Below, piece by piece: positions 14,213 to 42,780 of a DNA stretch of 64,000 nt; the stretch's first letter is position 1, and each line of letters opens with the position of its first letter. A program made the translations under genes and the position numbers. Below the pieces are notes generated by a model that ran no database searches, had not been told where the DNA came from, and saw only the letters and a list, made by a program, of their open reading frames with translations. Source of the stretch: a virus; IMG/VR virus record IMGVR_UViG_3300032770_000007, positions 1 to 64,000 of that record; one strand, 5' to 3'.

Positions 14213-15185
14213 TGAAGCCTACCTTGCGACGCATTTTACCACGAGCATCTTCGCCTGTAGGTCTGTTACCTACCATTGCCTTGATGCGCTCAATGGTCTC
14301 GCTAAAACTTTTGCCAAGACACTCAATAGATACCACAACTTCTTTAAGAGCAGCTATTGAGAAATCCTTGGTGTTGTTTACCCACCTATCTAGTTCTTCC
14401 TGATCAGCTGCCAATCTTGGATTCTTAACCTTGAGATATGCTTCTCTGGCCTGTGGACTTGGCATGTCAATCAAAAGAACTTCATCAAATCTGCTTGGTC
14501 TTCTTACAAATCTATCATCCAATTCATCTGGATAATTTGTAGTGGCGATGTACACCACATTATCAATCTGTAGTTCGCCATCCAGAAGAGCCAAGAGATC
14601 AGGCTCACCAAATCTCTGAATGACTGCATCAATATCCTCAATCAACACAACCACTGGACGATGTTTTTCAATACGTCTAAACACTCTCAAAGCCTCAGCA
14701 GTTACGGCTGGTGAGTTACAATAGACAGAAATACCGTCCTTTTCTATGATCTGCATTGATAGCTGCTGTAGCAAAGAGGTCTTACCAGAGCCAGGAGGAC
14801 CATATAGCAGCATACCTCTTTTCCAAAGAAAGTTGAACTGTCTAAAAAACTTTTCTCTTGACCAAAAATCATTGATAGAATTCAAAACATTCTGGCCTTG
14901 TGAATCAGGTAAAACCAACAACTCATCCAGGTTGACATCCTTCTTTACCAAATATACTCCTCTTTGTTCACTATACATTGGAATATATTGGCCAGCTGGC
15001 ACTCTCTTTTCTGCTTTATCACAAGGGAAATATGAGTCTCCATGAACAGACCACATTTTCTGATCACCAAAAAGTATCTGTTGTTTGATGCTTTCTTCAC
15101 TATCATTATCCATTCCATCACTTAAATCTCTACTGCGGAACAGTGTAGAAGTTGGAACTGCTGAGGTGACACTATTTCTACCCAT
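14202..15185 (-). CDS. AAA+ ATPase, BCS1/CDC48-like
   Basis: 327 residues. Walker A GMLLYGPPGSGKTSLL at about residue 115, Walker B VVLIEDIDAVI, sensor TTNYPDELDDRFVRRPSRFD with the arginine finger. The N-terminal 100 residues are not recognised. Single AAA domains of this kind remodel proteins or complexes. Position next to gp59 suggests a replication or early role, but the substrate is unknown. Confidence 0.75.
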   Translation of the reverse strand: MGRNSVTSAVPTSTLFRSRDLSDGMDNDSEESIKQQILFGDQKMWSVHGDSYFPCDKAEKRVPAGQYIPMYSEQRGVYLVKKDVNLDELLVLPDSQGQNVLNSINDFWSREKFFRQFNFLWKRGMLLYGPPGSGKTSLLQQLSMQIIEKDGISVYCNSPAVTAEALRVFRRIEKHRPVVVLIEDIDAVIQRFGEPDLLALLDGELQIDNVVYIATTNYPDELDDRFVRRPSRFDEVLLIDMPSPQAREAYLKVKNPRLAADQEELDRWVNNTKDFSIAALKEVVVSIECLGKSFSETIERIKAMVGNRPTGEDARGKMRRKVGFSVD

Positions 15186-15835
15186 TATATAACTCCTAAT
15201 ATTTCTTTAATAATTGCTTTGTATTTGTCTATATCAAAATATTTGTATTCATATATGAAAGGTCTAAAATTCAAATATTGTTTATAAAATGTTTGCCATA
15301 TGATGTCATTTTGTAGATTCTTGTTCCAACCTTCTGTTAGGTGCATGAAGTAATCTAAAATAATCAATGTCTCTAGATTAATCTGATTACCTTGTACCAT
15401 TTCAAAAAGTTTTGGATAAGCATTCTCTTCACAGACTATTAATGATTTAAAAGTATCTTTGATGGGTGTTAGTTGATCTGTTAGAAGTTGTTCTCTATTA
15501 TTTTGATCTTCTCTCCAGGCTATAAATCTATCCATTTGTTGTAAATCAAAGACATCATGAACCCAAATTTTAGGATTATGATAAAAACATAATGCAAGAA
15601 AATAAGTAGAATCTTCATTAACTATCATGTTATGCTGATCAAACAATCTACCTAGTTTTACAAAAGAGTACTTATCTGATCTCTTATTAAAAACTGCAAG
15701 AGTGCCTTCTACCTTACCACTATATTTGAAAAAATCATAATCAGTGTTAAAGTGCAACCATGTGGCCTTGAACAGTTTATAAGCAAAAAATCCCTTAAAA
15801 CCACCAATCAATTTTTCTAATCCTCTATCGGCCAT
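15185..15835 (-). CDS. 59: Helicase loader, T4 gp59-like
   Basis: 216 residues against 217 in T4 gp59. YDFFKYSGKVEGTLAVFNKR and SDKYSFVKLGRLF match the T4 pattern (YDVIKYNWCM...RRDKYFFQKLSEKY), and the helical C-terminal half with NLETLIILDYFMHL matches ISFETFILLDSFLN. gp59 binds gp32-coated forks and loads the gp41 helicase. Here it is in one operon with gp32. Confidence 0.8.
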   Translation of the reverse strand: MADRGLEKLIGGFKGFFAYKLFKATWLHFNTDYDFFKYSGKVEGTLAVFNKRSDKYSFVKLGRLFDQHNMIVNEDSTYFLALCFYHNPKIWVHDVFDLQQMDRFIAWREDQNNREQLLTDQLTPIKDTFKSLIVCEENAYPKLFEMVQGNQINLETLIILDYFMHLTEGWNKNLQNDIIWQTFYKQYLNFRPFIYEYKYFDIDKYKAIIKEILGVI

Positions 15836-16164: not shown

Positions 16165-16386
16165 TTACAGAGGGAGTTTAGCAGAATGTCCTGGCAACAT
16201 CCGTAATGCTTTAGCCTCTGCCTCTATCTTCTTTTTTAGTTGAGTATTTATCAAAGTCTTTACCATTTCAATCTCTAAACCAGTCTGTTCGCAATGATTA
16301 ATAATTGCCTCCATATGGGAACAGTTATCATCAATAGCCTTGCGTTCTATATACTGAGAAAACTTAGTCTTGTTATCAAGTCGCAT
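16165..16386 (-). CDS. 33: Late transcription coactivator, gp33-like
   Basis: 73 residues. The C-terminal half, EIEMVKTLINTQLKKKIEAE followed by AKALRMLP and KLPL, matches gp33 of T4-like environmental phages, where a short helical protein ends in a hydrophobic clamp-binding motif. gp33 bridges RNA polymerase to the sliding clamp at late promoters. CTAAATA/TATAAATA boxes across the window fit a late system; no gp55 gene is in this window. Confidence 0.6.
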   Translation of the reverse strand: MRLDNKTKFSQYIERKAIDDNCSHMEAIINHCEQTGLEIEMVKTLINTQLKKKIEAEAKALRMLPGHSAKLPL

Positions 16387-17428
16387 TCAGGCTACCATTT
16401 AGTTGATGATTGACTTTGATGAAATGAGGATCCTTCTGAAGTTCAGGAATGGTCCTGGCTCCAACATATAGCATGCCACTACGCAGGCCATTCAAATATC
16501 TTTGAACCGTATTTACTATAGACCCTCTATATCTTATTTTAACTTCTTTACCTTCTGATGATCTATAATCAGCCAGACCGCCATTATGAAGTTCCTGAGC
16601 CTTCTTGCTGGCCATGCCATGGAAAGGCAAACCACCATTAACAATATCCTTCAGTTCTGCTTCAGAATAGCCTTCCTTATGCCCCGCAAACTGTCCACCA
16701 ATCATGACAAAATCAGCACCACCAGCAAAAGCCTTGACCATGTCACCAGGACAGGTGATGCCTCCATCAGCGCAGATTTGGCCTTTTACTTTTCTGGCTG
16801 CTTCTACACATTCTAATAATGCAGAAAACTGAGGATATCCAACTCCTGTTTCTTGTCGAGTTGTACAAACAGAACCAGGACCAATACCAATCTTTACTAT
16901 ATCAACACCAACAGAAAACAACTGACTTACTCTTTGAGGAGTAACAACATTTCCGGCCATCAATACATAATGCCGATATCCTAGTGCCAACTTCTGTGCT
17001 ATTCTCAAAAAACTATCTGTATAAGCATTGGCCACATCCAAACATAAAGCACTTGGACCTTTGATATTTTCCTTGAGCAATGCATTTTCAAATGCCTGTA
17101 GTTTGTCTAAATCTGCCTGACCAGAACCCAAAGAATATATGGTATATCTGGCCACATCCTTATTCTCACGATAAAATCTTAGGAGTTCTTCTAAAGTGTA
17201 ATGCTTATTCAAACAAGTAAGAAGACTATACTTTGACAATACTTTTGCTATCTCAAATGTGCCTATATGATCCATGTTAGCAGCAATAATAGGCACAGTG
17301 TCTGTGAATTTGAAAAGATATTTGGTAAGTAATACTTCTTGTCTAGACTCTGGTCCATTGATTACTTGTTTTGGGACTAGCATGACATCAGCATAATCTA
17401 ACTTCACATCATTATCTATAACCACCAT
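16376..17428 (-). CDS. guaC: GMP reductase (IMPDH/GMPR family)
   Basis: About 350 residues of TIM-barrel fold. LDYADVMLVPK is the family N-terminus, CLDVANAY and IGIGPGSVCTTRQETGVGYPQ hold the catalytic Cys loop, then DGGITCPGDMVKAF, GADFVMIGGQFAG and SSEGKEV. The lack of CBS domains and the CTTR/GVGYPQ loop favour GMP reductase over IMP dehydrogenase. It converts GMP to IMP with NADPH, feeding purines to A nucleotides. The start was set at the ATG giving MVVIDNDVKLDY; it overlaps the gene upstream. Confidence 0.8.
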   Translation of the reverse strand: MVVIDNDVKLDYADVMLVPKQVINGPESRQEVLLTKYLFKFTDTVPIIAANMDHIGTFEIAKVLSKYSLLTCLNKHYTLEELLRFYRENKDVARYTIYSLGSGQADLDKLQAFENALLKENIKGPSALCLDVANAYTDSFLRIAQKLALGYRHYVLMAGNVVTPQRVSQLFSVGVDIVKIGIGPGSVCTTRQETGVGYPQFSALLECVEAARKVKGQICADGGITCPGDMVKAFAGGADFVMIGGQFAGHKEGYSEAELKDIVNGGLPFHGMASKKAQELHNGGLADYRSSEGKEVKIRYRGSIVNTVQRYLNGLRSGMLYVGARTIPELQKDPHFIKVNHQLNGSLNAT

Positions 17429-17652
17429 TTCCACCATCTTTTCTTTATTGGACGAGGAGTATATGTACCCAAATTCACTATACACATCATCCTACAAAAG
17501 GGACAACGAAGAGTCACGTAATCAGGCACAGTTCTAGTAGCATTATGAAACTTGCCTTCAGTTCCATGAAAAGTAAACTCAGTAGCACAACAACGGCATT
17601 TACCACGATATTCGTGTTCCCAGGGCAACTTACCTTGTGTGATGATTTTCAA
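17416..17652 (-). CDS. Small zinc-ribbon protein
   Basis: 78 residues with two CxxC pairs (GKCRCCATEF and LRCPFCRMMC), forming a likely zinc ribbon, and a basic Trp-rich tail (KKRWWKWWL). No known family. Stops at UAG inside the start region of the GMP reductase gene. Confidence 0.55.
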   Translation of the reverse strand: MKIITQGKLPWEHEYRGKCRCCATEFTFHGTEGKFHNATRTVPDYVTLRCPFCRMMCIVNLGTYTPRPIKKRWWKWWL

Positions 17653-17664: not shown

Positions 17665-17700
17665 ATAAAAGGTGGCGTATGAGTAACAGAGAACACCACC
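17665..17700 (-). terminator. Intrinsic terminator after the tmRNA
   Basis: GGTGGTG pairs with CGCCACC across a 16-base loop and is followed by TTTTATT on the minus strand. It closes the permuted tmRNA transcript. Confidence 0.7.
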
Positions 17701-17940
17701 AGAAACTCTGGATTCAGCTTTAGGCTGCTAGTGCCATTTCTGGCAAATCGAATGCATCATCGTCGTTTGCATTTAACGTTTTGTGCTGCTTAGGGCAGTC
17801 ACCTGTCCGGTAGCCATTGATTTATTCCGCGCCCAATCGAAACCTGGTCATCCCCATATGGTGGAGATGTGGGGAATCGAACCCCAGTCTTGAACGATTT
17901 TAGTCAACAGTTATACTACCATCAGAACTATTTAGTTTAC
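17700..17940 (-). ncRNA. ssrA: Circularly permuted (two-piece type) tmRNA
   Basis: Read on the minus strand, an acceptor piece comes first: T arm TGGGG-TTCGATT-CCCCA, acceptor strand CATCTCC, then A and CCA (17861-17859). Three bases (TAT) later the 5' acceptor strand GGGGATG (17855-17849) begins; the two strands pair over 7 bp including a G3-U70 wobble, the alanine identity element. Then comes a GGTTTCGAT D-loop-like segment and a tag frame starting GCA at 17770: ANDDDAFDLPEMALAA and stop TAA at 17720. The ALAA end is typical of tmRNA degradation tags. Outer limits are approximate. A terminator follows. Permuted tmRNA is known from several bacterial lineages. Confidence 0.93.
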
Positions 17941-21547: not shown

Positions 21548-21552
21548 GATAG

Positions 21553-21624
21553 CGCGCGAGGCGGGATTTGAACCCGCAACCGTGATGTTTAGAGCACCCC
21601 GCTCTGACGTTGAGCTACACGCGC
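21553..21624 (-). tRNA. Putative amber suppressor tRNA (anticodon CUA)
   Basis: Anticodon loop CTCTAAA gives CUA, which pairs with UAG. D arm GCTC/GAGC, T arm GCGGG-TTCAAAT-CCCGC and a 7-bp acceptor with a T-T mismatch at 6-67 are visible. Anticodon stem has 4 of 5 pairs. The 3' end reads G-CTA, so CCA is not encoded, unlike most tRNAs in the main array. It stands alone between two protein genes. Confidence 0.7.
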
Positions 21625-33220: not shown

Positions 33221-33311
33221 AATGTCTCCTGGTGCCAGTACACAGACTTGCACTGTGATTTCTTGCTTACGAAACAAGTGTTCTGCTACTTGAACCATAC
33301 TGGCCAATATT

Positions 33312-33396
33312 TGGTGCTCGTGACAGGATTTGAACCTGCAAGACCGAAGTCAGTGGTTTTTAAGACCACCATGTATACCCATTCCACCACACGAGC
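33312..33396 (-). tRNA. tRNA-Leu(UAA)
   Basis: Acceptor GCTCGTG/CACGAGC, anticodon loop CTTAAAA, long variable arm as in leucine tRNAs, CCA encoded. Confidence 0.9.
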
Positions 33397-33400
33397 ATTG

Positions 33401-33991
33401 TTAATCTAGCTTAATCTTACCATCCACAAACAATCTTGAAGTTTTTGGAATCTTTGACTCCAAAAAGTCCATTTGATCTGCTAAAATATTTCTATTCTTC
33501 AAAACATACTTTTCAGCCAAAGTTGGAACATAAGGAACATACAGCAGCATCATACCTGCTTCTTCAGGAGTTCTATCAGCCTTTTTGTGATTGCATCCCT
33601 TACAAGCAGTGACTGTATTCATCCAAATATTTTTACCACCTCTTGAACGAGGAAGTACATGGTCAATAGTAAGTTTGTGATTATGAAACTTATTCCCACA
33701 AAAGGCGCAAAGATATCTATCACGCGCATAAAGAATGTCCCTTTCAGTGTAGGCAGTTGTCTTTGACAACCACTTTTCACCAACCAATGGACCAGTAACA
33801 CCAATCACTGGATTGATGTTGATGCGTGAGATTTCTCCATCCTTATTCTTACCACCAGTAAATGTCTTAACAGTATCTCCTACTGTCCAGACCACCTTGT
33901 CTCTGGCATAGTAACAACAGGCCACTTCGAATCCCTGCCATTCGCGAGGATTACCCGCCGCATCAGTTATCAATATTTGTACCGGCAACAC
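33401..33991 (-). CDS. HNH endonuclease (non-homing type)
   Basis: 196 residues from GTG behind AGGAG. Core LCAFCGNKFHNHKLTIDHVLPRSRGG then WMNTVTACKGCNHKKADRTP, an HNH domain with two CxxC pairs, in a family widespread in bacteria and phages. It lacks NUMOD repeats, so it may be a cargo-processing or defence nuclease rather than a homing enzyme. The gene starts inside the end of the HNH homing gene. Confidence 0.7.
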   Translation of the reverse strand: MLPVQILITDAAGNPREWQGFEVACCYYARDKVVWTVGDTVKTFTGGKNKDGEISRININPVIGVTGPLVGEKWLSKTTAYTERDILYARDRYLCAFCGNKFHNHKLTIDHVLPRSRGGKNIWMNTVTACKGCNHKKADRTPEEAGMMLLYVPYVPTLAEKYVLKNRNILADQMDFLESKIPKTSRLFVDGKIKLD

Positions 33992-34556
33992 TTTCTTTTC
34001 TCCTTTTCCAAATCTCTTTCATCATTTTGCTTTTGTTTATACGATACTCTTCTGATCTAATACAACCTTTAGCATTCTGATTTCCTAACTTAGTCAAAGA
34101 TAACTTTGCTCTAACCTCTAATCTTTTATTAGGACTATCTTCTCCCCTCAAAATGGGTAATCTATTTCCCCAACCTTCTTCAATAGCCTTTGTTCTTATA
34201 TAGGCTTTATGAGTTTCAGTATGCTTTCTTCCTCTATTCCTTTCACCAACTTTACGTTTCATTATCTCGGTACGTTTTTTGCCTTTATTTCCTTTGCTTA
34301 TCTTCTTTTTACTTTCTTCTGTATGTTTAATCAATTTTCTGGCTTCTTCTAACTGCCTCAAAATAACTTCTTCGTGCCCAATCATGCCAGCTAAACCTTT
34401 CCAAGCTATTTCATCTTGCCATCTTCCATATTTTTCAAATAACACCTTATGAGCATCAGCATGATCTTTTACAGACACTTCTATTAAATTAGAAGTGTCA
34501 TCTGATCCTCCCATATGTTTCGGAACAATATGATGTTTATGTTTGACAGTATTCAT
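33963..34556 (-). CDS. HNH homing endonuclease
   Basis: 197 residues. KHHIVPKHMGGSDDTSNLIE and VKDHADAHKVLFEKYG give the HNH core; NUMOD3-type repeats follow (ESKKKISKGNKGKKRTE, NRGRKHTETHKAYIR). A CTAAATA box lies 4 bases before the ATG and a TATAAT box further upstream (34577-34582). Confidence 0.8.
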   Translation of the reverse strand: MNTVKHKHHIVPKHMGGSDDTSNLIEVSVKDHADAHKVLFEKYGRWQDEIAWKGLAGMIGHEEVILRQLEEARKLIKHTEESKKKISKGNKGKKRTEIMKRKVGERNRGRKHTETHKAYIRTKAIEEGWGNRLPILRGEDSPNKRLEVRAKLSLTKLGNQNAKGCIRSEEYRINKSKMMKEIWKRRKESVAGTNIDN

Positions 34557-34560
34557 AGTT

Positions 34561-34567
34561 TATTTAG
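34561..34567 (-). promoter_or_regulatory. CTAAATA late-promoter-like box
   Basis: Minus-strand CTAAATA 4 bases upstream of a homing endonuclease ATG, as at 12807 and 41755. Confidence 0.45.
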
Positions 34568-34576
34568 CACAAAACC

Positions 34577-34605
34577 ATTATAAACTGAATATCTGTAAGA
34601 GTATT
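34577..34605 (-). promoter_or_regulatory. Probable sigma70-type promoter
   Basis: TATAAT with AATACT 17 bases upstream. The -35 hexamer is weaker than in the other promoters of this window. Confidence 0.4.
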
Positions 34606-34632
34606 ATCTAAATGAGTATGTGGCTGATCTCA

Positions 34633-34902
34633 TTAGATAAAACCCAAGATATTGTTATCTTCAATCATGATTTCATCTGATGCTAAACCTGGCATGCCTG
34701 GATGCAAAGCACCATTCTTCAAATAGGTCACCTTGACACCTTTGGCGAAGTTATGAAATACTTTATCTTCTCTCTTACCTGCTGTAGGACCAACCTCTAC
34801 AACCTCTCCAACTCCATAAACAGGATGCTCACTAATCAATACACGACCTGGAGCCTTCTGTTCAACCACTCTCAAAATCACTCTATTATATGTAGGAAAC
34901 AT
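34633..34902 (-). CDS. GroES-like co-chaperonin
   Basis: 89 residues (GroES 97, T4 gp31 111). The pattern YNRVILRVVEQKAPGRVLIS, GVGEVVEVGPTAGKRE, FAKGVKVTYLKNG and SDEIMIEDNNILGFI follows the GroES beta-barrel, with the ending EDNNILG like the GroES end. The mobile loop region is present but shortened. T4 gp31 adapts GroEL to fold the capsid protein; this may do the same. Confidence 0.65.
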   Translation of the reverse strand: MFPTYNRVILRVVEQKAPGRVLISEHPVYGVGEVVEVGPTAGKREDKVFHNFAKGVKVTYLKNGALHPGMPGLASDEIMIEDNNILGFI

Positions 34903-34916
34903 AATCTAAACTCCCC

Positions 34917-35114
34917 TTATAAAAACCATTCTGTCTCTGTCAAAAGCTGTCTGCCCTCATTCATTGTTTTCTTGCTACGAACCCATGTCTCAAAAGATGG
35001 AGGAGTACCAGCATAGTTCATAAATGCTATACGATATTCTTCAGCATATTTCTCATATTCTTCTGTCGTCAAAACTATGTCAGGTTCTTGTGCTATCTTG
35101 ATTGTCATTTTCAA
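34917..35114 (-). CDS. Small helical protein
   Basis: 65 residues (KMTIKIAQEPDIVLTTEEYE...). Helical; overlaps the MazG-like gene end by about 35 bases. Unknown. Confidence 0.45.
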   Translation of the reverse strand: MKMTIKIAQEPDIVLTTEEYEKYAEEYRIAFMNYAGTPPSFETWVRSKKTMNEGRQLLTETEWFL

Positions 35115-35421
35115 CTCCTGCTTGATCTAAATCAAAATCTGCTAATGAAGGTATGTATTTCTTTAGTTTGGTTATCTTCTTACGGACAGCAGCATCCAAA
35201 ATCTTTTCATTCAAAATTTCTGGATATTTATTACTAATGATTATCACTGTCGCAATGACATCACCAACTTCTTGTTGAAAACTTTCTAACTTTGTTTTGC
35301 CATTGATGTAAATAGTATCCCAACCAAATTGGTCTGCTTTGAAATATGCCTGAATGACTTCAGCACATTCCTCGCAAAGTTTCTTCAACAAAAGTTTCTG
35401 TTCATCATTCATGGGATACAT
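35080..35421 (-). CDS. MazG-like nucleotide pyrophosphohydrolase
   Basis: 113 residues. LCEECAEVIQAYFKADQFG and FQQEVGDVIATVIIISNKY give the ExxE...ExxD metal-binding set of the all-alpha NTP pyrophosphohydrolase family. It may clean modified NTPs or affect ppGpp. Start could be at MNDEQKLLLKK nine bases inside. Confidence 0.65.
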   Translation of the reverse strand: MYPMNDEQKLLLKKLCEECAEVIQAYFKADQFGWDTIYINGKTKLESFQQEVGDVIATVIIISNKYPEILNEKILDAAVRKKITKLKKYIPSLADFDLDQAGVENDNQDSTRT

Positions 35422-35693
35422 GCTCCACCATAACTAAAAAAGGCTGCATAATTTGTGTTAATATTGGCTGTTGTATTTGCTTCTGGTTGTTTTACAAAAC
35501 CAGAATTTTTGTAATGATAATCTGTTAAAAATGTGAGCAAACAATAGTCATGATATACATTCTCACGATAAGTTACTGCAGTGGCTCGGTCATAGTATAA
35601 TGACTTTTTACAAACTGGACAACTTTTCCTAAGAACTTCAAGATTGTTCTCATAATGCCAATAAACTTCTGGCTCACTATTTGTGTTATCCAT
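35409..35693 (-). CDS. Small zinc-finger-like protein
   Basis: 94 residues with CPVCKKSLYYDRATAV and YHDYCLLTFL, a Cys/His set for one zinc. GGGAGG and a CTAAATA box (35709-35715) precede the ATG. Unknown function. Confidence 0.5.
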   Translation of the reverse strand: MDNTNSEPEVYWHYENNLEVLRKSCPVCKKSLYYDRATAVTYRENVYHDYCLLTFLTDYHYKNSGFVKQPEANTTANINTNYAAFFSYGGACIP

Positions 35694-35708
35694 TAAGCCT
35701 CCCTATTA

Positions 35709-35715
35709 TATTTAG
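35709..35715 (-). promoter_or_regulatory. CTAAATA late-promoter-like box
   Basis: Minus-strand CTAAATA 15 bases before the ATG at 35693, with GGGAGG between. Confidence 0.45.
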
Positions 35716-35718
35716 CAA

Positions 35719-36021
35719 CTAGTTTAGCTTTGGATCTCCCACACTTTCATAATAATATTTGCCTTCACATAATGCTACATAAATCTCGCCCAAATCTTCT
35801 TGAGCAGCCTTTATAACTTCATCCTTGTTAAACCCATTGGTCTGAGATAGTTCATGAAGTTGAACACCCAAAGTATTCAACAATGCCCAAACTGTGACCC
35901 CAGCATGCTGTTCTTGATCACAAACAACTTCAATCTTAGATTGAAGTTCATCAGCCTTTTCATAGAACTCCTCAGACTCAGCTTCTGATATTTCCAAATC
36001 TTCCTTACTATATGTATTCAT
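35719..36021 (-). CDS. Helical protein
   Basis: About 100 residues from MNTYSKEDLEISEAESEEFY, acidic and helical. ATG is 2 bases from the previous stop. No family recognised. Confidence 0.5.
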   Translation of the reverse strand: MNTYSKEDLEISEAESEEFYEKADELQSKIEVVCDQEQHAGVTVWALLNTLGVQLHELSQTNGFNKDEVIKAAQEDLGEIYVALCEGKYYYESVGDPKLN

Positions 36022-36022
36022 A

Positions 36023-36187
36023 TTACTCCTCAAATTTATCTGGACCTGTTAAGGTACTTAGCTGTTCTCTTGTAATGTACCAATGCCAATAAAGAGAACC
36101 ACACTTAGGACAACCTGGTCCATAATATTGTCCAAACTGGCCCACACCATCAAACCAGCGATGATAACATTTATAACAAATCATCAT
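36023..36187 (-). CDS. Small zinc-ribbon protein
   Basis: 54 residues. ICYKCYHRWFDGVGQFGQYY then GPGCPKCGSLYWHWYI: two CxxC pairs in a ribbon. It fills exactly the interval between two genes. Confidence 0.6.
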   Translation of the reverse strand: MMICYKCYHRWFDGVGQFGQYYGPGCPKCGSLYWHWYITREQLSTLTGPDKFEE

Positions 36188-36192
36188 ACAAG

Positions 36193-36633
36193 TCATATAA
36201 CAATCAACTTCGTTCTCTTACCTAATGATGCAGCATACTTCATAGTCCAACAACCACCTGACTTAATGTGATCTGAAGTGTGACAATGGTAGCAAGAAGA
36301 AAATCTCATGTCATTGTAACCAGGTGGATATTCTTTCACAGTTATACAAACAACCAAATCAGATGCCTTAGCAATCTGAATATTGCGTTGCTTGTAACCA
36401 CCTTCCCATCTTTCAATCTTTGGTGGAAACTCTCTGGTTGAAATACCAAGACTCTTGGCCTCTTCTATGGCCCAAATATCTATCCCTCCTCTTGGACAAG
36501 CACCAGAAACCACTTCACCCAAAGCATAACTAACCAGTTCCTCGTTACAGATTTGCCGGATTGCTGCTCTGGCCTTTGCTTCTGTTTCTGGAGTAAACTT
36601 TATGGATTCACTGCCAACAATGCCTATGATCAT
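36193..36633 (-). CDS. SLOG-like (YspA/DprA-type Rossmann) protein
   Basis: 146 residues. IIGIVGSESIKFTPETEAKA at the N-terminus, VVSGACPRGGIDIWAIEEAK with the SG..RGxD loop, and NIQIAKASDLVVCITVKE. This is the SLOG fold that binds nucleotide-derived ligands in several anti-phage signalling systems. A phage copy might bind and sequester such signals. Function unproven. Ends with GCWTMKYA instead of the usual G-T...A. Confidence 0.55.
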   Translation of the reverse strand: MIIGIVGSESIKFTPETEAKARAAIRQICNEELVSYALGEVVSGACPRGGIDIWAIEEAKSLGISTREFPPKIERWEGGYKQRNIQIAKASDLVVCITVKEYPPGYNDMRFSSCYHCHTSDHIKSGGCWTMKYAASLGKRTKLIVI

Positions 36634-36974
36634 AATATATCTTTCAAAACTGCAGCTACATGCTCAGCATATAGAATTTTGTTTCTAATCTTGCCTCGAG
36701 CAGCTGGATGAATAATCTTCAAATGAGGTATCTTTGCTCTGGTAAGTCTCTTTGATGCCTTTGCTCCCATGGCTACAATTGGTCCTTTGTGGTTTCTTAT
36801 TCTTGTAATGGCGCCGCGTTCAAAAGCATTATCAAATATCCTTGGTCCTCTGAAGCCAATCATTTCAAATGCATCAAATAACTGTTTGGCTGCTAGTCTG
36901 CCATTTTCCCAACGGACATTCATCCGGATAGCGGTTTTTGATCTCTTTTCGCCTACAAATAAAATAATGTTCAT
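36630..36974 (-). CDS. Uracil-DNA-glycosylase-like protein
   Basis: 114 residues from the ATG overlapping the previous TGA (ATGA). IILFVGEKRSKTAIR resembles the GE.P motif, GRLAAKQLFDAF the next block, and IIHPAARGKIRNK the second HPAARG motif of the UDG superfamily. It is shorter than typical UDGs, so activity is uncertain. Confidence 0.45.
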   Translation of the reverse strand: MNIILFVGEKRSKTAIRMNVRWENGRLAAKQLFDAFEMIGFRGPRIFDNAFERGAITRIRNHKGPIVAMGAKASKRLTRAKIPHLKIIHPAARGKIRNKILYAEHVAAVLKDIL

Positions 36975-37189
36975 TCTAATATCGCAATTCGTTTCCATTC
37001 ACCACAATATTCATCCAATGGTACTGGTGGATGCTCCCATTGAGTATAGGGCGATCCGCTGGCATGTGCATAAATAACAGGTATAAGCGGATAGCGATGA
37101 CATCGTTTTGGAGCATCAGGAAAATCATCTGGAAATATTAATGACTTATCTTTCCTAGCAAAATGACAGTTTCCGCAACACCTAGACAT
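36971..37189 (-). CDS. Small Cys-rich protein
   Basis: 72 residues with CCGNCHFARKDK, KRCHRYP and EYCGEWKR, a four-Cys arrangement common to small phage proteins of this kind. Likely zinc binding. Unknown role. Confidence 0.55.
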   Translation of the reverse strand: MSRCCGNCHFARKDKSLIFPDDFPDAPKRCHRYPLIPVIYAHASGSPYTQWEHPPVPLDEYCGEWKRIAILE

Positions 37190-37218
37190 TAGAATATATC
37201 AATGATAAGAAGAGTGAT

Positions 37219-37410
37219 CTATGAACCTCGAACATTTACTTTATCCATCATATGAACTAAAGCACGAATGGTTTCTTCTGCTGAAAGATCAGTTTGCTTA
37301 ACCTGGTTTTCAACCAAGATAGTATAGACGTCGGGTCCATGCTCTTGTTCAAAATGAGTAGGACTAGAAATCACCCTAATCTTTCGGTCTGATGTTTCGG
37401 CGACTAGCAT
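37219..37410 (-). CDS. Small hypothetical protein
   Basis: 63 residues, alpha/beta (DRKIRVISSPTHFEQEHG...). No motif recognised; directly follows the DNA ligase gene. Confidence 0.45.
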   Translation of the reverse strand: MLVAETSDRKIRVISSPTHFEQEHGPDVYTILVENQVKQTDLSAEETIRALVHMMDKVNVRGS

Positions 37411-37418
37411 TCTTATCC

Positions 37419-38333
37419 TTACATATCAATCTTGTCACGGAATCCCTGAAACACTGGGAACCGAGGCAAATCCTTTACACCAACTTCAAAATAGCGGTAC
37501 TTGATAAACTTGCCATTCAAAGCAGATCGATGACGCCAATATTTCTTTCTCTCATCAGCATCAAAACCAGTGCCAACATTGAACCGGACACCAGTCTTCA
37601 AATCCTCAACAATGAAAGAGCCCAGAGTACCTTTACCAACCATGCCATCCTTTTTGCTGGAACGTTCTGTGTGACCAAAAACATCCAGAGTGGCCTCATT
37701 AGTATTCTCTAACTCCTCCACTGCTCCTACAATCACTGCCTCACTATCCTTAAATCGGCGGACCTTCAGCATGAATCCCTCATTGGCTGTAGAGCGGCCG
37801 AACTTATAGGGTGAATCCAGACTACGCAGAATCAGTCCCTCATAACCAAGCTGAAGGACCTTCTCCTCATAGGCACGCAGAGCAGTATCATCATTGATCT
37901 GAACCTGCTGCAAAATCACTACACGATGTGGTAGTTCTTTACAAGTAGGATAACCAGATCGCCATTTGCCCTGAAGCAATCTCTGATTGCGCTGAACAAA
38001 GGTCTCATTTGGAAAATTTACCATGTCAAAAACATAAAACATAAAGTCTGGCTGTCCTTCAATGGACATCACCGCACTATTGGTGACACGGTAGACATCC
38101 TTAGCATTCGGTGAACCAACAATCAGTTCACCATCCAGACCTTCAAGTTCAGGATACTGAGAAAACCATAGCTCAACAAATTTGTTTGGAAACAGTTTTC
38201 CTGACCTGGAAAAGATTTGGGCGACTCCATTCACCTTTTCTACAATCCCACGGACACCATCCAGTTTGGCACTAGCCATAACTGGATATCTAATAACCTC
38301 TGGAGCCTCAACAGCAAGCATGGGCTTTTTCAT
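37419..38333 (-). CDS. ATP-dependent DNA ligase
   Basis: 304 residues, T7-like size. Motif I ASAKLDGVRG with the nucleophile Lys at 24, then RSGKLFPN (Ia), LDGELIV (III), FYVFDMV (IIIa), EGLILRSLDSPYKFG (IV) and FMLKVRRF (V). C-terminal OB fold with GTLGSFIVEDLKTG. It seals nicks in phage replication. Overlaps the small gene upstream (ATGA). Confidence 0.85.
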   Translation of the reverse strand: MKKPMLAVEAPEVIRYPVMASAKLDGVRGIVEKVNGVAQIFSRSGKLFPNKFVELWFSQYPELEGLDGELIVGSPNAKDVYRVTNSAVMSIEGQPDFMFYVFDMVNFPNETFVQRNQRLLQGKWRSGYPTCKELPHRVVILQQVQINDDTALRAYEEKVLQLGYEGLILRSLDSPYKFGRSTANEGFMLKVRRFKDSEAVIVGAVEELENTNEATLDVFGHTERSSKKDGMVGKGTLGSFIVEDLKTGVRFNVGTGFDADERKKYWRHRSALNGKFIKYRYFEVGVKDLPRFPVFQGFRDKIDM

Positions 38334-38560
38334 GTGTAAATCACCGCGTCATCATTCTCATTAATAAAATCAATACAGGCTCGATTCAGTGCGGCCGCAA
38401 AGCGATCTGCTACTTCCTTTGAAAGGCATGAGCCTATGGTAAAGTCAGTGTTGTGAGTTTTAATCTCCCAAAACTCCTCTGGATTCACATTCGGATTAGC
38501 ATCCGCTAATACTACTCCAGGGACGGGCACTACATGAAAAGGATGCCAGTACTTAGCCAT
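38330..38560 (-). CDS. Small hypothetical protein
   Basis: 76 residues from MAKYWHPFHVVPVPGVVLAD. Alpha/beta with a helical C-terminus. Coupled to the DNA ligase gene. Unknown. Confidence 0.5.
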   Translation of the reverse strand: MAKYWHPFHVVPVPGVVLADANPNVNPEEFWEIKTHNTDFTIGSCLSKEVADRFAAALNRACIDFINENDDAVIYT

Positions 38561-38795
38561 GATGAGACACCTTCGCCAAATATTGGGCAATAGTATTATG
38601 AACTACAGAAGACAAATTACCAAGTGATACATCGCTGAAACTAGGACCATAGTTATTCAAACGACCATGCTTTTCAGCCTCAACGATAGTTTGTAAAAGA
38701 GTCAACAACTCATCTCGTTCCTTACGAGCAACATCACGCTGACGTGTCAGATTTGTTATGATGTGTTGGTAATCTGAAGGAGATACAGTCTTCAT
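38553..38795 (-). CDS. Small helical protein
   Basis: 80 residues; a coiled-coil N-terminus (IITNLTRQRDVARKERDELL). Overlaps neighbours on both sides. Unknown function. Confidence 0.5.
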   Translation of the reverse strand: MKTVSPSDYQHIITNLTRQRDVARKERDELLTLLQTIVEAEKHGRLNNYGPSFSDVSLGNLSSVVHNTIAQYLAKVSHHG

Positions 38796-38968
38796 ATCAC
38801 CAGATCATACACACTTACGTAAAATTCACCAGGTTCGCCATTGAGATGAGTAAGCTGGCCCACTAATACAGTATCACCATCAATTTCGAGGACTTCAACA
38901 TACTCAGCAACTGACCCCAAAACGGCATTAGCCTTTAGGGTAACTATCTGACCAACCTCTAAGCTCAT
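38792..38968 (-). CDS. Small KOW-like barrel protein
   Basis: 58 residues behind TAGGAGACAATA. LEVGQIVTLKANAVLGSVAE then VEVLEIDGDTVLVGQLTH suggests a small beta barrel. Transcribed from the promoter cassette at 38994-39022. Confidence 0.6.
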   Translation of the reverse strand: MSLEVGQIVTLKANAVLGSVAEYVEVLEIDGDTVLVGQLTHLNGEPGEFYVSVYDLVI

Positions 38969-38993
38969 TATTGTCTCCTACCTAATGAAGACC

Positions 38994-39022
38994 ATTATAC
39001 TCTTACAGAGATAGGAAGTAAA
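38994..39022 (-). promoter_or_regulatory. Sigma70-type promoter, repeated cassette copy 3
   Basis: TTTACT-N17-TATAAT. The spacer ends CTCTGTAAGAG, shared with copy 4 at 53479 and nearly with copy 1. Confidence 0.8.
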
Positions 39023-39050
39023 GCACTATAAATGATTGTAAATCAATATG

Positions 39051-39476
39051 TTAGGATGGATTATCTGGAAGAATGGCATCTTTTTGAATTTCTTGCCACA
39101 AATCTTCATCATTTTTGACTTCAACCTTGATGTTTTGAAGTTCTCTTTGGACCTTTTCATCAATAGCAGCCTGCTGTCCGGAACGACGGCGAAACTCCAT
39201 TTGTCTCCAGTCCTCAAACTCTTTAGTCTTAGTCATGCGCACAAAGGCCATTTGTCTGTTCTGTCTTTGAGAACGTGTGTCCTCAGCATAACCACGAGCA
39301 CCTGAAGGAGGATGCTTGCAATGCACTGCTGATGATGTTTTATTTTTCGCCTGACCACCATGGCCAGTCCCTCTTGTATAAGACCACTCACAATCTTTGG
39401 CTGTGACTGAAAACAGAAGTCTACGGGATTCAACTATATTACCTGGCTTTAAATTTTTTATGTTTATTGAGCTCAT
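39051..39476 (-). CDS. RF-1 domain (GGQ) protein
   Basis: 141 residues. SYTRGTGHGGQAKNKTSSAV contains the GGQ tripeptide that triggers peptidyl-tRNA hydrolysis in release factors and rescue factors (bacterial consensus GPGGQ-VNK-SAV), followed by HCKHPPSGARGYA and a basic helical tail. No codon-recognition domain is present, so it resembles ArfB/ICT1-type rescue proteins more than RF1/RF2. With the phage tmRNA it suggests ribosome rescue or release control. Confidence 0.8.
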   Translation of the reverse strand: MSSINIKNLKPGNIVESRRLLFSVTAKDCEWSYTRGTGHGGQAKNKTSSAVHCKHPPSGARGYAEDTRSQRQNRQMAFVRMTKTKEFEDWRQMEFRRRSGQQAAIDEKVQRELQNIKVEVKNDEDLWQEIQKDAILPDNPS

Positions 39477-39675
39477 AGGCTAAACAGATTGTTCGTTTTT
39501 TAGTGAAATAATTTCTGGACCACTTTAACCAAGTCACAGGATATTTAGCATTGAAAGCAGAAGGATGAACTAGTTTGAATCGTATATAAGGCTCATACCA
39601 ACCAGTAAAGGTGTGATCAATCATGAATCTAGAACAGTCAGGAGGATCCCAACGACTATGTCTTCTTTTTTTCAT
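39439..39675 (-). CDS. Small basic protein
   Basis: 78 residues, rich in Trp, Arg and Lys (WLKWSRNYFTKKRTICLAYE). Overlaps the GGQ gene by 38 bases. Unknown; could bind RNA. Confidence 0.45.
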   Translation of the reverse strand: MKKRRHSRWDPPDCSRFMIDHTFTGWYEPYIRFKLVHPSAFNAKYPVTWLKWSRNYFTKKRTICLAYELNKHKKFKAR

Positions 39676-40015
39676 TAACTATTTGCATCAACTGATTGGT
39701 AATAATCGTGGCCTTGACTATTTCTTCTTGTGGCCGTTCATCATATCCATAACAGTTTTCAACCATATATATATGGTTGAATTCAACCATATAACCTGCT
39801 TCTCTAGCAGCAATATGTAATTCATCAATGGTATTGTCCCAAAGACAACGAACTTTTTGATTATTATATGTTAGAGTAACCATAGTATAAACCATAGTAT
39901 ACCAGGTATAGGCGCTGGTGCAATTGACCATCATATCTGTAAAAGTACGATGAGTTATAACCTCTAGTATATCTCTAAGTTCATCCTCATATATTTTGAT
40001 ATTATCATTTGACAT
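39656..40015 (-). CDS. Hypothetical protein
   Basis: About 119 residues from MSNDNIKIYEDELRDILEVI. Helical. Its coding region contains a near-perfect inverted repeat around 39757-39780 (TTCAACCATATATATATGGT type) which is translated as MVEFNHIYMVEN. Confidence 0.5.
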   Translation of the reverse strand: MSNDNIKIYEDELRDILEVITHRTFTDMMVNCTSAYTWYTMVYTMVTLTYNNQKVRCLWDNTIDELHIAAREAGYMVEFNHIYMVENCYGYDERPQEEIVKATIITNQLMQIVNEKKKT

Positions 40016-40045
40016 AATATTTCCTGAAAACAGAAGCATTTATAT

Positions 40046-40121
40046 TGGAACCCCCGACAGGACTCAAACCTGCATTTACCTGGTTCGTAGCCAGGGCCGT
40101 ATTCATTCCGGTCACGAGGGC
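40046..40121 (-). tRNA. tRNA-Arg(ACG)
   Basis: Anticodon loop CTACGAA on stem CCTGG/CCAGG, acceptor GCCCTCG, CCA encoded. Same body as tRNA-Arg(UCU) at 47343. Confidence 0.88.
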
Positions 40122-40126
40122 AAAAC

Positions 40127-40202
40127 TGGATCCATCACTGGGACTCAAACCCAGATTTGTGCCTTACCAAAGCACTGTCCTAATCACTTGGACGATGACG
40201 GA
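40127..40202 (-). tRNA. tRNA-Thr(GGU)
   Basis: Acceptor TCCGTCA/TGATGGA, loop TTGGTAA, T arm CTGGG-TTTGAGT-CCCAG, CCA encoded. Overlaps the end of the JAMM gene by 23 bases. Confidence 0.85.
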
Positions 40203-40704
40203 AAATATTTCCTATGATCCTACCTGAAGGCAAATGAATCCATTGACTAATGCCTTCTATGGTAATAACTCTTATATCTCTACCTGTATCATGAACCTTA
40301 TCTATCTTAGGATCAAACTCATGAACATCGCCGGTGCATTCATCAAGAATGAATGTAGGAACACCAAAGTAATAAGGAGACACCAAATCCTGTTGTGAAA
40401 AATATTGCGAATAGTAATCATTTGAACAAGGATGGGTGTGATATAGACCTTTCAACGTTGCTCCTGGTAAAAGAAGCCTAGTCACATCAACAGTTACTGC
40501 TGCTACATTCTTATTAGTAACAGGAAACATAGAATATTGATATTGACCTTTATAAAGGACAATGATGCCACCATATTCCCACTTCTTGGCATCGTCTATT
40601 TTATTGATATATTTCAAAGCATGAATAGCTGTAGTCTCTAGTTCATTTGACATTGATATCATGGGAACTAATAAAAAGAGACTAAGGAAGATAGCTTTGA
40701 GCAT
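40180..40704 (-). CDS. Secreted JAB/JAMM metalloprotease-like protein
   Basis: 174 residues with a signal peptide (AIFLSLFLLVPMISMS). GLYHTHPCSNDYYSQYFSQQ followed by D gives HxH...SxxD, the zinc-binding JAMM motif, as in DUF4329-like domains. Exported to the periplasm, it may cut a host envelope protein or act in lysis. A CTAAATA box precedes the ATG (40709-40715). Confidence 0.65.
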   Translation of the reverse strand: MLKAIFLSLFLLVPMISMSNELETTAIHALKYINKIDDAKKWEYGGIIVLYKGQYQYSMFPVTNKNVAAVTVDVTRLLLPGATLKGLYHTHPCSNDYYSQYFSQQDLVSPYYFGVPTFILDECTGDVHEFDPKIDKVHDTGRDIRVITIEGISQWIHLPSGRIIGNIFRHRPSD

Positions 40705-40708
40705 TCAA

Positions 40709-40715
40709 TATTTAG
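40709..40715 (-). promoter_or_regulatory. CTAAATA late-promoter-like box
   Basis: Minus-strand CTAAATA 4 bases before the JAMM gene ATG. Confidence 0.4.
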
Positions 40716-40716
40716 G

Positions 40717-40810
40717 GTTTCAAACTACCTCTTGTTCAATGAGGATCGCCTGCCAGCGACTATACAACACATAGGTGGCAGCCAGGATAAGTTGTATTAG
40801 AGTTTGAAAC
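40717..40810. ncRNA. Structured RNA candidate A, possible pseudoknot
   Basis: A perfect 10-bp outer stem (GTTTCAAACT/AGTTTGAAAC) encloses a CCTC/GAGG hairpin and two further pairings CTGCCA (40750)/TGGCAG (40776) and ATACAAC (40762)/GTTGTAT (40791), whose order a-b-a'-b' is that of a pseudoknot. It sits between a protein gene and the tRNA array and matches no tRNA. Confidence 0.6.
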
Positions 40811-40814
40811 ATTC

Positions 40815-40888
40815 TGGTAGTGAAGGATGGTTATGCTCCATCGTCTATGGCTTATGAAACCACCGCTCTCCTATTGAGCTACTTCACC
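40815..40888 (-). tRNA. tRNA-Met(CAU), elongator or Ile2
   Basis: Loop TTCATAA, acceptor GGTGAAG/CTTCACT, D arm GCTC/GAGC, CCA encoded. The T loop AGCATAA lacks the usual TTC. Confidence 0.75.
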
Positions 40889-40893
40889 AAATT

Positions 40894-40970
40894 TGGTGCC
40901 TCCACCAGGATTTGAACCCGGACCCTACCGCTTAAAAGGCGGAGCTCTATCACACTTGAGTTATGGAGGC
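40894..40970 (-). tRNA. tRNA-Lys(UUU)
   Basis: Loop CTTTTAA, acceptor GCCTCCA, T arm with TTCAAAT, CCA encoded. Confidence 0.9.
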
Positions 40971-40976
40971 ATGAAT

Positions 40977-41052
40977 TGGTAGGTCCAGTCGGAACTGCCC
41001 CGACATCCAACACTTTAAGAGAGTGAGCTCTATCTGATTGAGTTATGGACCT
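40977..41052 (-). tRNA. tRNA-Lys(CUU)
   Basis: Loop CTCTTAA on a 4-bp stem, acceptor AGGTCCA/TGGACCT, CCA encoded. T loop GGCAGTT is atypical. Confidence 0.75.
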
Positions 41053-41057
41053 GAAAA

Positions 41058-41136
41058 TGGTGCGCGGATGTGGAATCGAACCACATTCTCAACTTCTTCA
41101 GAGTTGCGCTGATGTCACCAGACTAGCTCTCCACGC
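41058..41136 (-). tRNA. tRNA-Phe(GAA)
   Basis: Loop CTGAAGA on CAACT/AGTTG, acceptor GCGTGGA/TCCGCGC, T loop TTCGATT, CCA encoded. Confidence 0.88.
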
Positions 41137-41747
41137 ATGAATTTTTCATAATCTTCTTTTTCTAAAATGATTAGTTTTCGTTCAGGATAGGTGGCAAGAA
41201 TAATATTCATTTTCTTTCGGTCATTACCCCACCAATAACCTTTTATCTCTAACCAAATATCCAACATCGGAAGATAAAAATCTGGCGCATATGATTTCCA
41301 TTGGCCATCCATTTGATATTTCCAAACATCATTATTTGTTGATGGTTTATTCCATTGAATATTAAGTTCATTTAGTTTAGTAGCTATATCGCGTTCCCAA
41401 GTACCTTGAACTTTTATTCCAGAAACTTCATACCATTTGGATTTACCACCACGATTGTGTAAGGACTGTTCAATACTCAATCGTTGTCTTGCTTCAAGAC
41501 ACATAGGTGGAGGTTTCCAACCCTTATTCACTCTATCTCGAAGTTCTATAGCAACATTTGCCGCATATGCAGCTACTCTGTTATCAGTTTCTTTTGATAG
41601 ACCTCTGTTCCAAGCCTTTCTGGGTTGTTTAGGAAGTATACTAGTGCTAATATTAGCACAACCTTTCTTAGTATGCCAATATAATCCACTAGTAGTTGTT
41701 TCCTTATGACAACTTATACAAGAACACCTAAGTTTATATTTGTCCAT
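41115..41747 (-). CDS. Homing endonuclease of PD-(D/E)XK/Vsr-like fold
   Basis: 210 residues. N-terminal zinc module RCSCISCHKETTTSGLYWHT (also in 12190-12801), a NUMOD-like WNRGLSKETD, and a C-terminal nuclease-like part WERDIATKLNELNIQWNKP, YAPDFYLPMLDIWLEIKGYW with D...ExK. Restriction-like homing enzymes of this kind are known in phages. Its end lies inside tRNA-Phe; a CTAAATA box precedes the ATG (41755-41761). Confidence 0.65.
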   Translation of the reverse strand: MDKYKLRCSCISCHKETTTSGLYWHTKKGCANISTSILPKQPRKAWNRGLSKETDNRVAAYAANVAIELRDRVNKGWKPPPMCLEARQRLSIEQSLHNRGGKSKWYEVSGIKVQGTWERDIATKLNELNIQWNKPSTNNDVWKYQMDGQWKSYAPDFYLPMLDIWLEIKGYWWGNDRKKMNIILATYPERKLIILEKEDYEKFMRGELVW

Positions 41748-41754
41748 ATGAATT

Positions 41755-41761
41755 TATTTAG
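41755..41761 (-). promoter_or_regulatory. CTAAATA late-promoter-like box
   Basis: Minus-strand CTAAATA 7 bases before a homing endonuclease ATG. Confidence 0.45.
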
Positions 41762-41798
41762 TACAGGGACGTGCTAATCTGTCTCAGCTAAGAACGCT

Positions 41799-41875
41799 TG
41801 GTGCCCCCGACAGGAGTCGAACCTGTAAAACCTTGTTTTTGAAACAAGTACGTATACCATTTCCGTCACAAGGGC
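41799..41875 (-). tRNA. tRNA-Leu(CAA) with short variable loop
   Basis: Loop TTCAAAA on CTTGT/ACAAG; acceptor GCCCTTG/CGGGGGC; CCA encoded. The body matches tRNA-Leu(UAG) at 43202 but the variable arm is only 5 bases, unlike normal leucine tRNAs. Confidence 0.75.
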
Positions 41876-41879
41876 ATAT

Positions 41880-41955
41880 TGGACTCCCTGACTGTCAGTT
41901 CAGTCTCAGCTGCAGCTGGCAAACTTCGCGTTCTAGAAAGGCAAAGTGCAGGGAG
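41880..41955 (-). ncRNA. tRNA-sized RNA with CCA end but no normal anticodon arm
   Basis: Exactly 76 bases with a perfect 7-bp acceptor (CTCCCTG/CAGGGAG), T73 and CCA. Inside, a CTTTGC/GCGAAG hairpin replaces the D arm, a palindrome CAGCTGCAGCTG stands where the anticodon arm should be, and the 3' hairpin loop is AACTGA, not a T loop. Confidence 0.6.
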
Positions 41956-41964
41956 ATAAAAAAT

Positions 41965-42029
41965 GGTGGAGTTATAGACCTGTAATAAGGCGTGATAGCT
42001 TTCAAACCCCATGCTATCAACTTATCAGC
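41965..42029 (-). ncRNA. Hairpin RNA with CCA end
   Basis: On the minus strand, directly after the CCA of tRNA-Ser: GATAAGT then a perfect 7-bp hairpin TGATAGC/GCTATCA, nested in CTGATAAG/CTTAT-TA-CAG, and a 3' end CTCCACCA. The GATAAGT plus hairpin is shared with the four tandem RNAs at 46503-46802. Confidence 0.45.
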
Positions 42030-42121
42030 TGGCGGAGCATATAGGATTCGAACCTATGTGATGAGTTTAATCATCAAGTTGTTTAGCAAACAACCGTCAT
42101 CAGCCTCTCGACCAATGCTCC
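42030..42121 (-). tRNA. tRNA-Ser(GCU)
   Basis: Loop TTGCTAA, acceptor GGAGCAT/ATGCTCC, long variable arm, G73, CCA encoded. Confidence 0.92.
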
Positions 42122-42127
42122 TTAGAA

Positions 42128-42218
42128 TGGAGGAAGGCTGAGGTATCGCGCCCCAAGTGATTCTTCACCACTCCCATCGCTTTCAAGGCGAGTTCTATGC
42201 TTCATAGATTAACCTTCC
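42128..42218 (-). tRNA. tRNA-Ser(UGA)
   Basis: Loop CTTGAAA, acceptor GGAAGGT/GCCTTCC, long variable arm GTGGTGAAGAATCAC, CCA encoded; T loop CGCGATA atypical. Confidence 0.8.
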
Positions 42219-42220
42219 AA

Positions 42221-42281
42221 ATATTCCGAAATGCGAGGCTCGGAATAACACCATCACAGGCTATCGCAATATGTCCTGTGT
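42221..42281. other. Two hairpins in a tRNA spacer
   Basis: ATTCCGA/TCGGAAT and CACAGG/CCTGTG form adjacent perfect stems between tRNA-Ser(UGA) and tRNA-Ile. Possibly processing signals or remnants of a lost tRNA. Confidence 0.45.
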
Positions 42282-42286
42282 CTGAT

Positions 42287-42361
42287 TGGTAGGTGACCAC
42301 GGTACTGCCCCGCGTTCTCACAGTAATCGGCTGTGGGTTTTGCTATCTAAACTAGTCACCC
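42287..42361 (-). tRNA. tRNA-Ile(GAU)
   Basis: Loop CCGATTA (C33 instead of U) on CACAG/CTGTG, acceptor GGGTGAC/GTCACCT, CCA encoded. Confidence 0.75.
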
Positions 42362-42367
42362 ATAAAA

Positions 42368-42550: not shown

Positions 42551-42620
42551 GACACATTACCTCTTCGGTTTAACTACATGTCATAAAAACCTCCTATTAA
42601 GTTGAATGTTACTATTTATT

Positions 42621-42694
42621 TGGATCATCCCCTTGGTTCCGCCCCAAGATTGCCGATTTCAGAGACCGGAGTACTACTATTGTACTAGGGATGA
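42621..42694 (-). tRNA. tRNA-Gln(CUG)
   Basis: Loop CTCTGAA, acceptor TCATCCC/GGGATGA, D arm GTAC/GTAC, CCA encoded; T loop GGCGGAA atypical. Confidence 0.78.
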
Positions 42695-42699
42695 ATAAC

Positions 42700-42773: not shown

Positions 42774-42780
42774 ATAAAAA

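What the first reader, a model, noticed from the sequence alone, without database searches (positions are those of the whole stretch)
17700..17940. Phage-encoded, circularly permuted tmRNA with a 16-residue tag
On the minus strand the 3' half of the tRNA-like domain (T arm, acceptor strand, A-CCA) precedes the 5' half (GGGGATG), separated by only TAT. The two acceptor strands pair perfectly with the G3-U70 alanine identity wobble, and a reading frame GCA...TAA encodes ANDDDAFDLPEMALAA. tmRNAs with permuted genes are established for some bacterial lineages; one-piece tmRNAs have been reported in a few phages. A permuted copy with a 3-base junction in a T4-like phage seems new. It implies processing of the junction by host or phage enzymes and a phage-specific degradation tag.
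Basis: partly seen in the sequence, partly recalled or inferred. Interest (0 to 1): 0.97.

Follow-up and report, generated by a model that had tools for sequence, protein, structure and literature searches.

The report
Permuted tmRNA gene in T4-like phage
This T4-like phage carries a rearranged gene for tmRNA, the RNA that frees stuck ribosomes and tags unfinished proteins; the gene is real and complete, but many relatives, including published phages and bacteria with almost equally short junctions, are already known, so it is a well-formed new member of a known kind.

Summary
On the minus strand at 17920-17720 lies a circularly permuted tmRNA gene (Rfam RF04321, 142 bits, E 6.6e-28; ARAGORN tmRNA*), with a perfect 7-bp acceptor stem including G3-U70, an encoded ACCA, a 3-base junction (TAT) and the tag ANDDDAFDLPEMALAA. 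The phage is T4-like (gp32, gp33, gp59). The novelty claim fails. A 2022 paper (phage Melnitz) counted 53 unique two-piece tmRNAs in phages. Junctions of 1-6 nt are common in viral contigs and usual in Rhodocyclales bacteria; one bacterial MAG has exactly 3 nt with CCA encoded. Stenotrophomonas phage BUCTxx99 and T4-like contigs L296/L298 have encoded CCA plus 4 nt. The gene also sits in a conserved place: tmRNA, gp33, gp59, gp32 in the same order in 24 other T4-like loci, Melnitz included. A T4-late-promoter-like TAAATA lies in the 54-nt leader of 16 of 24 such genes (0.69 expected). The likeliest mechanism is ordinary: phage transcription (probably late), host RNase P and 3' trimming at the junction, two base-paired pieces, alanine charging, and trans-translation with host SmpB, since none is found in the phage. 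Verdict: new member of a known kind, modest interest.

The parts
17929..17935 (-). CTAAATA, T4-late-promoter-like -10 element immediately upstream of the acceptor piece
   Evidence: Most intergenically enriched 7-mer of the 125.8-kb record (15 of 28 minus-strand copies intergenic; 8.7% of the genome is intergenic); TAAATA in the leader of 16 of 24 homologous tmRNA genes, 0.69 expected
17859..17920 (-). Acceptor piece (T arm, acceptor 3' strand, A73, encoded CCA); 5' end approximate
   Evidence: RF04321 alignment starts at 17920; sequence
17870..17886 (-). T arm TGGGG-TTCGATT-CCCCA
17863..17869 (-). Acceptor stem 3' strand CATCTCC with U70
   Evidence: 7 of 7 pairs with 17849-17855; G3-U70 invariant in 27 distinct relatives
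17856..17858 (-). Junction (intervening sequence) TAT, predicted to be removed
17849..17855 (-). Acceptor stem 5' strand GGGGATG, start of the coding piece
17809..17813 (-). CTACC, pairs with GGTAG (17920-17916) in the helix that joins the two pieces
   Evidence: RF04321 alignment and RNA fold
17793..17808 (-). Hairpin GGACAG/CTGCCC at the PK1 position; pseudoknot not established
   Evidence: RF04321 alignment
17720..17770 (-). Tag reading frame GCA...TAA, ANDDDAFDLPEMALAA, preceded by TTAAAT
17667..17700 (-). 3' hairpin (7-8 pairs) followed by TTTT: probable end of the coding piece and intrinsic terminator
   Evidence: RNA fold; missed by the terminator scan, whose loop limit is 8
16165..16386 (-). 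gp33, late-transcription coactivator
   Evidence: PHROG 254 E 7.1e-17; PF16805 E 1.8e-17
15185..15835 (-). gp59-like helicase loader
   Evidence: PHROG 269 E 2.6e-31; PF08993
12830..13777 (-). gp32 single-stranded DNA-binding protein
   Evidence: PF08804 E 5.7e-39; PHROG 224 E 1.2e-95

Best explanation
It is a complete, probably functional two-piece tmRNA gene of the permuted class; of Rfam's lineage-specific models the betaproteobacterial one is the match. It sits at a conserved position of a T4-like phage clade, upstream of gp33, gp59 and gp32. Transcription probably starts just downstream of a T4-late-type TAAATA element, at or near the 5' end of the acceptor piece, and ends at the hairpin with a U tract. 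The precursor folds the acceptor stem as a 7-bp hairpin closed by the loop ACCAUAU. Host RNase P would cut before G1 and host 3' nucleases would trim UAU back to CCA, leaving an acceptor piece and a coding piece held together by the acceptor stem and the GGUAG/CUACC helix. Host alanyl-tRNA synthetase, EF-Tu and SmpB would then use it for trans-translation, adding ANDDDAFDLPEMALAA, whose ALAA end should direct tagged proteins to ClpXP-type proteases. The likely use is to free ribosomes and clear unfinished proteins while mRNAs are being degraded during infection. Shown: sequence, structure by homology, synteny, promoter-motif enrichment. Inferred: expression time, processing, charging, tagging, benefit to the phage.
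For: ARAGORN and two Rfam models. Acceptor pairs 5-6 and T-stem pairs 1-2 each take 3-4 different standard pair types in 27 distinct T4-like and named-phage relatives, with no broken pair; G3-U70 and encoded ACCA are invariant there. Tags of relatives mostly end in ALAA. The order tmRNA, gp33, gp59, gp32 holds in 24 other loci including Melnitz, wherever each gene was detected. Late-like promoter element in the leader. The two-piece tmRNA of Caulobacter is known to function, and RNase P and tRNase Z are the proposed processing enzymes (review PMC3985003).
Against: No transcript, end-mapping or charging data. No SmpB gene in the phage record, so function would depend on the host. Folding energy is not unusual. 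Pair counts lean towards structure because ARAGORN selects paired forms. The TAAATA element was not tied to late expression by experiment, and the Melnitz authors proposed early expression for theirs. PK1 was not established.
Confidence: 0.85

Rival explanations
1. A phage tmRNA that acts as a decoy: it binds host SmpB or ribosomes and blocks host trans-translation instead of doing it.
For: A form from phage DS6A that is little more than the tRNA-like domain resembles a molecule reported to inhibit tmRNA, perhaps by titrating SmpB (PMC4131195; PMC11915505). No SmpB is found in this phage.
Against: Here and in relatives the tag frame, the sequence before the resume codon and an ALAA-type end are kept, which a decoy would not need.
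Confidence: 0.07
2. A passenger copy picked up from a host, for example by imprecise prophage excision, with no current role.
For: tmRNA genes are common integration sites, and fragments are carried by prophages (discussed in PMC9004378).
Against: The gene is complete, compensatory changes keep the helices in relatives, and the position upstream of gp33-gp59-gp32 is shared by many divergent T4-like loci.
Confidence: 0.05
3. Chance similarity or a tRNA remnant misread as a tmRNA.
For: The phage is rich in tRNA genes.
Against: E 6.6e-28 over the full model length, with all main tmRNA-specific parts present.
Confidence: 0.01

Closest known systems
Two-piece ssrA of Methylophilales phage Melnitz (MZ577097, PMC9004378)
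   Same: Permuted tmRNA in a T4-like phage, upstream of gp33, gp59 and gp32 in the same order, with TATAAATA just upstream and an encoded CCA
   Different: Alphaproteobacterial type by its authors' tree, long intervening sequence, different tag, altered T loop GGCAGTA
T4-like viral contigs L296, L298, L335 (IMG/VR)
   Same: Same locus order, beta-type permuted tmRNA, encoded CCA, 4-nt junction, tag ANDSNYDMALAA
   Different: Junction CTAT instead of TAT, acceptor pair 5 G-C instead of A-U, shorter tag
Stenotrophomonas phages BUCTxx99 (OR529408) and DLP6 (KU682439)
   Same: Permuted tmRNA with encoded CCA and the same acceptor stem GGGGATG/CATCTCC; BUCTxx99 has a 4-nt junction
   Different: Not annotated in the records; tags ANDDVYVVALAA and ANDDSFAPMAIAA; DLP6 has a junction of 31 nt
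Betaproteobacterial two-piece tmRNA (RF01850), in Rhodocyclales such as Accumulibacter and Dechloromonas
   Same: Encoded CCA and junctions of mostly 4 nt; one MAG (L247) has 3 nt, TGC
   Different: Bacterial chromosomal genes with a CATAAT-like box upstream; no TAAATA-type phage element
Cyanophage permuted tmRNAs (S-CAM1, S-CRM01, S-SSM7)
   Same: T4-like phages with only 5-7 nt in all between the acceptor strands
   Different: Cyanobacterial type, CCA not encoded, longer tags

Membership tests
Permuted (two-piece) tmRNA, RF04321 | Matches the covariance model above its gathering score over its full length | tested here: met
   142.1 bits against 47, positions 1-213 of 213
Permuted (two-piece) tmRNA, RF04321 | 3' part of the tRNA-like domain precedes the 5' part, with a junction between | tested here: met
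   Sequence and ARAGORN
Permuted (two-piece) tmRNA, RF04321 | Alanine identity: G3-U70 and A73 | tested here: met
Permuted (two-piece) tmRNA, RF04321 | Tag reading frame with resume codon and hydrophobic AA end | tested here: met
   ANDDDAFDLPEMALAA
Permuted (two-piece) tmRNA, RF04321 | PK1 pseudoknot before the tag | tested here: inconclusive
   A hairpin is present at the PK1 position; the second stem was not established
Permuted (two-piece) tmRNA, RF04321 | Precursor cut at the junction into two mature pieces | not testable with these tools
   Needs RNA end mapping
Permuted (two-piece) tmRNA, RF04321 | Works with SmpB | not testable with these tools
   No SmpB in the phage record nor in four related phage records; host SmpB would have to serve
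T4-like phage | Carries gp32, gp33 and gp59 homologues | tested here: met
T4-type late promoter | Exact TATAAATA at -10 | tested here: not met
   Element is CTAAATA; exact TATAAATA occurs only twice in the window, below chance
T4-type late promoter | Variant of the element enriched between genes on the coding strand of this phage | tested here: met
   CTAAATA ranks first among 7-mers for intergenic enrichment

The most novel reading that the evidence does not exclude
In a broad T4-like clade, tmRNA is a conserved, late-expressed member of the gp33-gp59-gp32 neighbourhood, with a late promoter placed so that transcription starts at or near the mature 5' end of the acceptor piece. The phages would run their own ribosome rescue with their own tags late in infection, using host SmpB. 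The 3-nt junction would be one end of a range in which the precursor is a minimal hairpin cut by host RNase P.
Probability: 0.45. Interest if true: 0.5.

Novelty: new member of a known kind. Interest (0 to 1): 0.3.

Why it matters
The single gene is ordinary for its class. What could matter is the pattern around it: the same gene, in the same place, with a late-type promoter element and changing tags, in many T4-like phages. That suggests ribosome rescue is a regular part of their programme, and it questions the early-expression idea put forward for Melnitz. Several such genes in cultured phages (DLP6, BUCTxx99) are unannotated and could be tested at once.

Tried and rejected
A 3-base junction as a new feature: rejected. 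A recoded genome explaining the CTA-anticodon tRNA: not supported, since TAG ends 18 of 135 long ORFs. SmpB carried by the phage: none found. Exact TATAAATA as the late promoter: not enriched; the CTAAATA variant is. CTAAATA counted over both strands of the window alone is not clearly above chance; the signal is its strand and intergenic position. Unusual folding energy: z -1.13. The first two pattern hits (L001, L002) proved to be standard tmRNAs with CCACCA or a tRNA end upstream by chance. The 2004 paper on the third two-piece lineage is not held, so whether it already describes such short junctions could not be checked.

Full report
Observation. The minus strand at 17920-17720 reads, in order: GGTAG..., T arm TGGGG-TTCGATT-CCCCA, CATCTCC, ACCA, TAT, GGGGATG, D-loop region, CTACC, hairpin, TTAAAT, then GCA...TAA. 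ARAGORN calls a permuted tmRNA with tag ANDDDAFDLPEMALAA. Rfam's permuted model matches over its full length at 142.1 bits (E 6.6e-28), and the betaproteobacterial model at 103.7 bits. It is the only RF04321 match in the 125,827-base virus record that holds the window.

What phage it is. Neighbouring genes on the same strand are gp33 (late-transcription coactivator), gp59 (helicase loader) and gp32. The nearest named gp32 proteins are only about 48-50% identical, in cyanophages, Sinorhizobium phage phiN3 and Stenotrophomonas phage DLP6. 'T4-like' is therefore right, but the phage is distant from cultured ones. The host is unknown.

Novelty of the permuted form. A 2022 paper on phage Melnitz counted 133 unique tmRNA structures in phage genomes, of which ARAGORN called 53 two-piece, 50 of those marine or aquatic (PMC9004378). 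A 2025 database paper lists 79 unique bacteriophage tmRNA sequences and built RF04321 (PMC11915505). GenBank records of Stenotrophomonas phages Marzo and Yut2 annotate theirs, and ARAGORN finds them permuted. The class is known.

Novelty of the 3-base junction. In the loci read, 58 with a fully paired acceptor stem have 1-6 nt after the four letters at the A-CCA position. Many of those are cyanobacterial-type genes without an encoded CCA, so the fair comparison is with CCA-encoding genes: 9 viral contigs and 44 bacterial contigs have 0-6 nt. The bacterial ones are mostly Rhodocyclales with 4 nt, and one MAG (L247) has exactly 3; the viral ones have 4-5. T4-like contigs L296 and L298 have 4 nt, found through their gp32 genes because their D loop lies outside the pattern. 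The cultured Stenotrophomonas phage BUCTxx99 also has 4. Among viral genes with an encoded CCA, 3 nt is the shortest I found, but by only one base, and the tools may leave out records very near the window.

Conserved place. Of the 80 best gp32 relatives in viral contigs, 28 carry an ARAGORN permuted tmRNA in the DNA held around gp32. Of the 36 with at least 5 kb upstream of gp32, 21 do, and two more (L306, L312) show a lower-scoring candidate with tag ANDNAPLVMALAA. In 24 loci, Melnitz among them, the order is tmRNA, gp33, gp59, gp32 wherever each gene was detected; a few of these loci are near-duplicates. The Melnitz record shows this order in its own annotation. This argues for an old, maintained gene rather than a recent passenger.

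Promoter. CTAAATA lies at 17929-17935. On the minus strand of the whole record it occurs 28 times, 15 of them intergenic although only 8.7% of the genome is intergenic, and it is the most enriched 7-mer by that measure. TAAATA is found in the 54-nt leader of 16 of 24 tmRNA genes against 0.69 expected from the same loci; the loci are related, so the printed P value overstates the case. Melnitz has TATAAATA at the same place, whereas its authors proposed early expression. That the element drives late transcription is inference from its likeness to T4 late promoters (own knowledge).

Structure. In 27 distinct relatives acceptor pairs 5 and 6 and T-stem pairs 1 and 2 each vary among 3-4 standard pair types with no broken pair, and G3-U70 never changes. 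The caveat is that ARAGORN prefers paired forms. A pseudoknot at PK1 was not established. A hairpin followed by TTTT at 17700-17667 probably ends the transcript.

Mechanism. From established knowledge of two-piece tmRNAs (review PMC3985003), the precursor is probably cut by RNase P and a 3' nuclease, and the pieces stay paired. Here the junction would be a hairpin with a 7-bp stem and the loop ACCAUAU. The phage record has no SmpB, nor do four related phage records, so host SmpB is needed. The tag should send unfinished proteins to host proteases. None of these steps was tested here.

Verdict. A real, complete, well-supported member of a known class, in a place shared with published phages. 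The broader pattern is more interesting than the single gene.

Noticed in passing
window 21552-21624, minus strand: tRNA with anticodon CTA (ARAGORN tRNA-Pyl; Rfam tRNA 53.9 bits), a possible amber suppressor, followed within a few bases by CTAAATA. TAG is still used as a stop (18 of 135 long ORFs), so genome-wide recoding is not supported.
   Followed up: partly
L370 2879-3222 (KU682439, Stenotrophomonas phage DLP6) and L372 1439-1764 (OR529408, BUCTxx99): Permuted tmRNA genes in two cultured phages that are not annotated in the records.
   Followed up: yes
L266 and L083: Dyella sp. AtDHG13 has a one-piece tmRNA (197 bits) and also a permuted one elsewhere; viral contig L083 matches that region at 99.3% over 3.6 kb, so the second copy may be on a prophage.
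   Followed up: partly
L290, L328, L345, L369, L448: Many T4-like permuted tmRNAs have altered T loops (TGCGATT, GGCAGTA) instead of TTCGATT; the window keeps the usual one.
   Followed up: no
window 33230-47578: About 25 tRNA genes in this stretch; ARAGORN and Rfam disagree at 40770-40888 (plus-strand Phe call against a minus-strand tRNA).
   Followed up: no
window 16376-17485, minus strand: IMP dehydrogenase / GMP reductase family gene just downstream of the tmRNA; L298 has a homologue upstream of its tmRNA.
   Followed up: no
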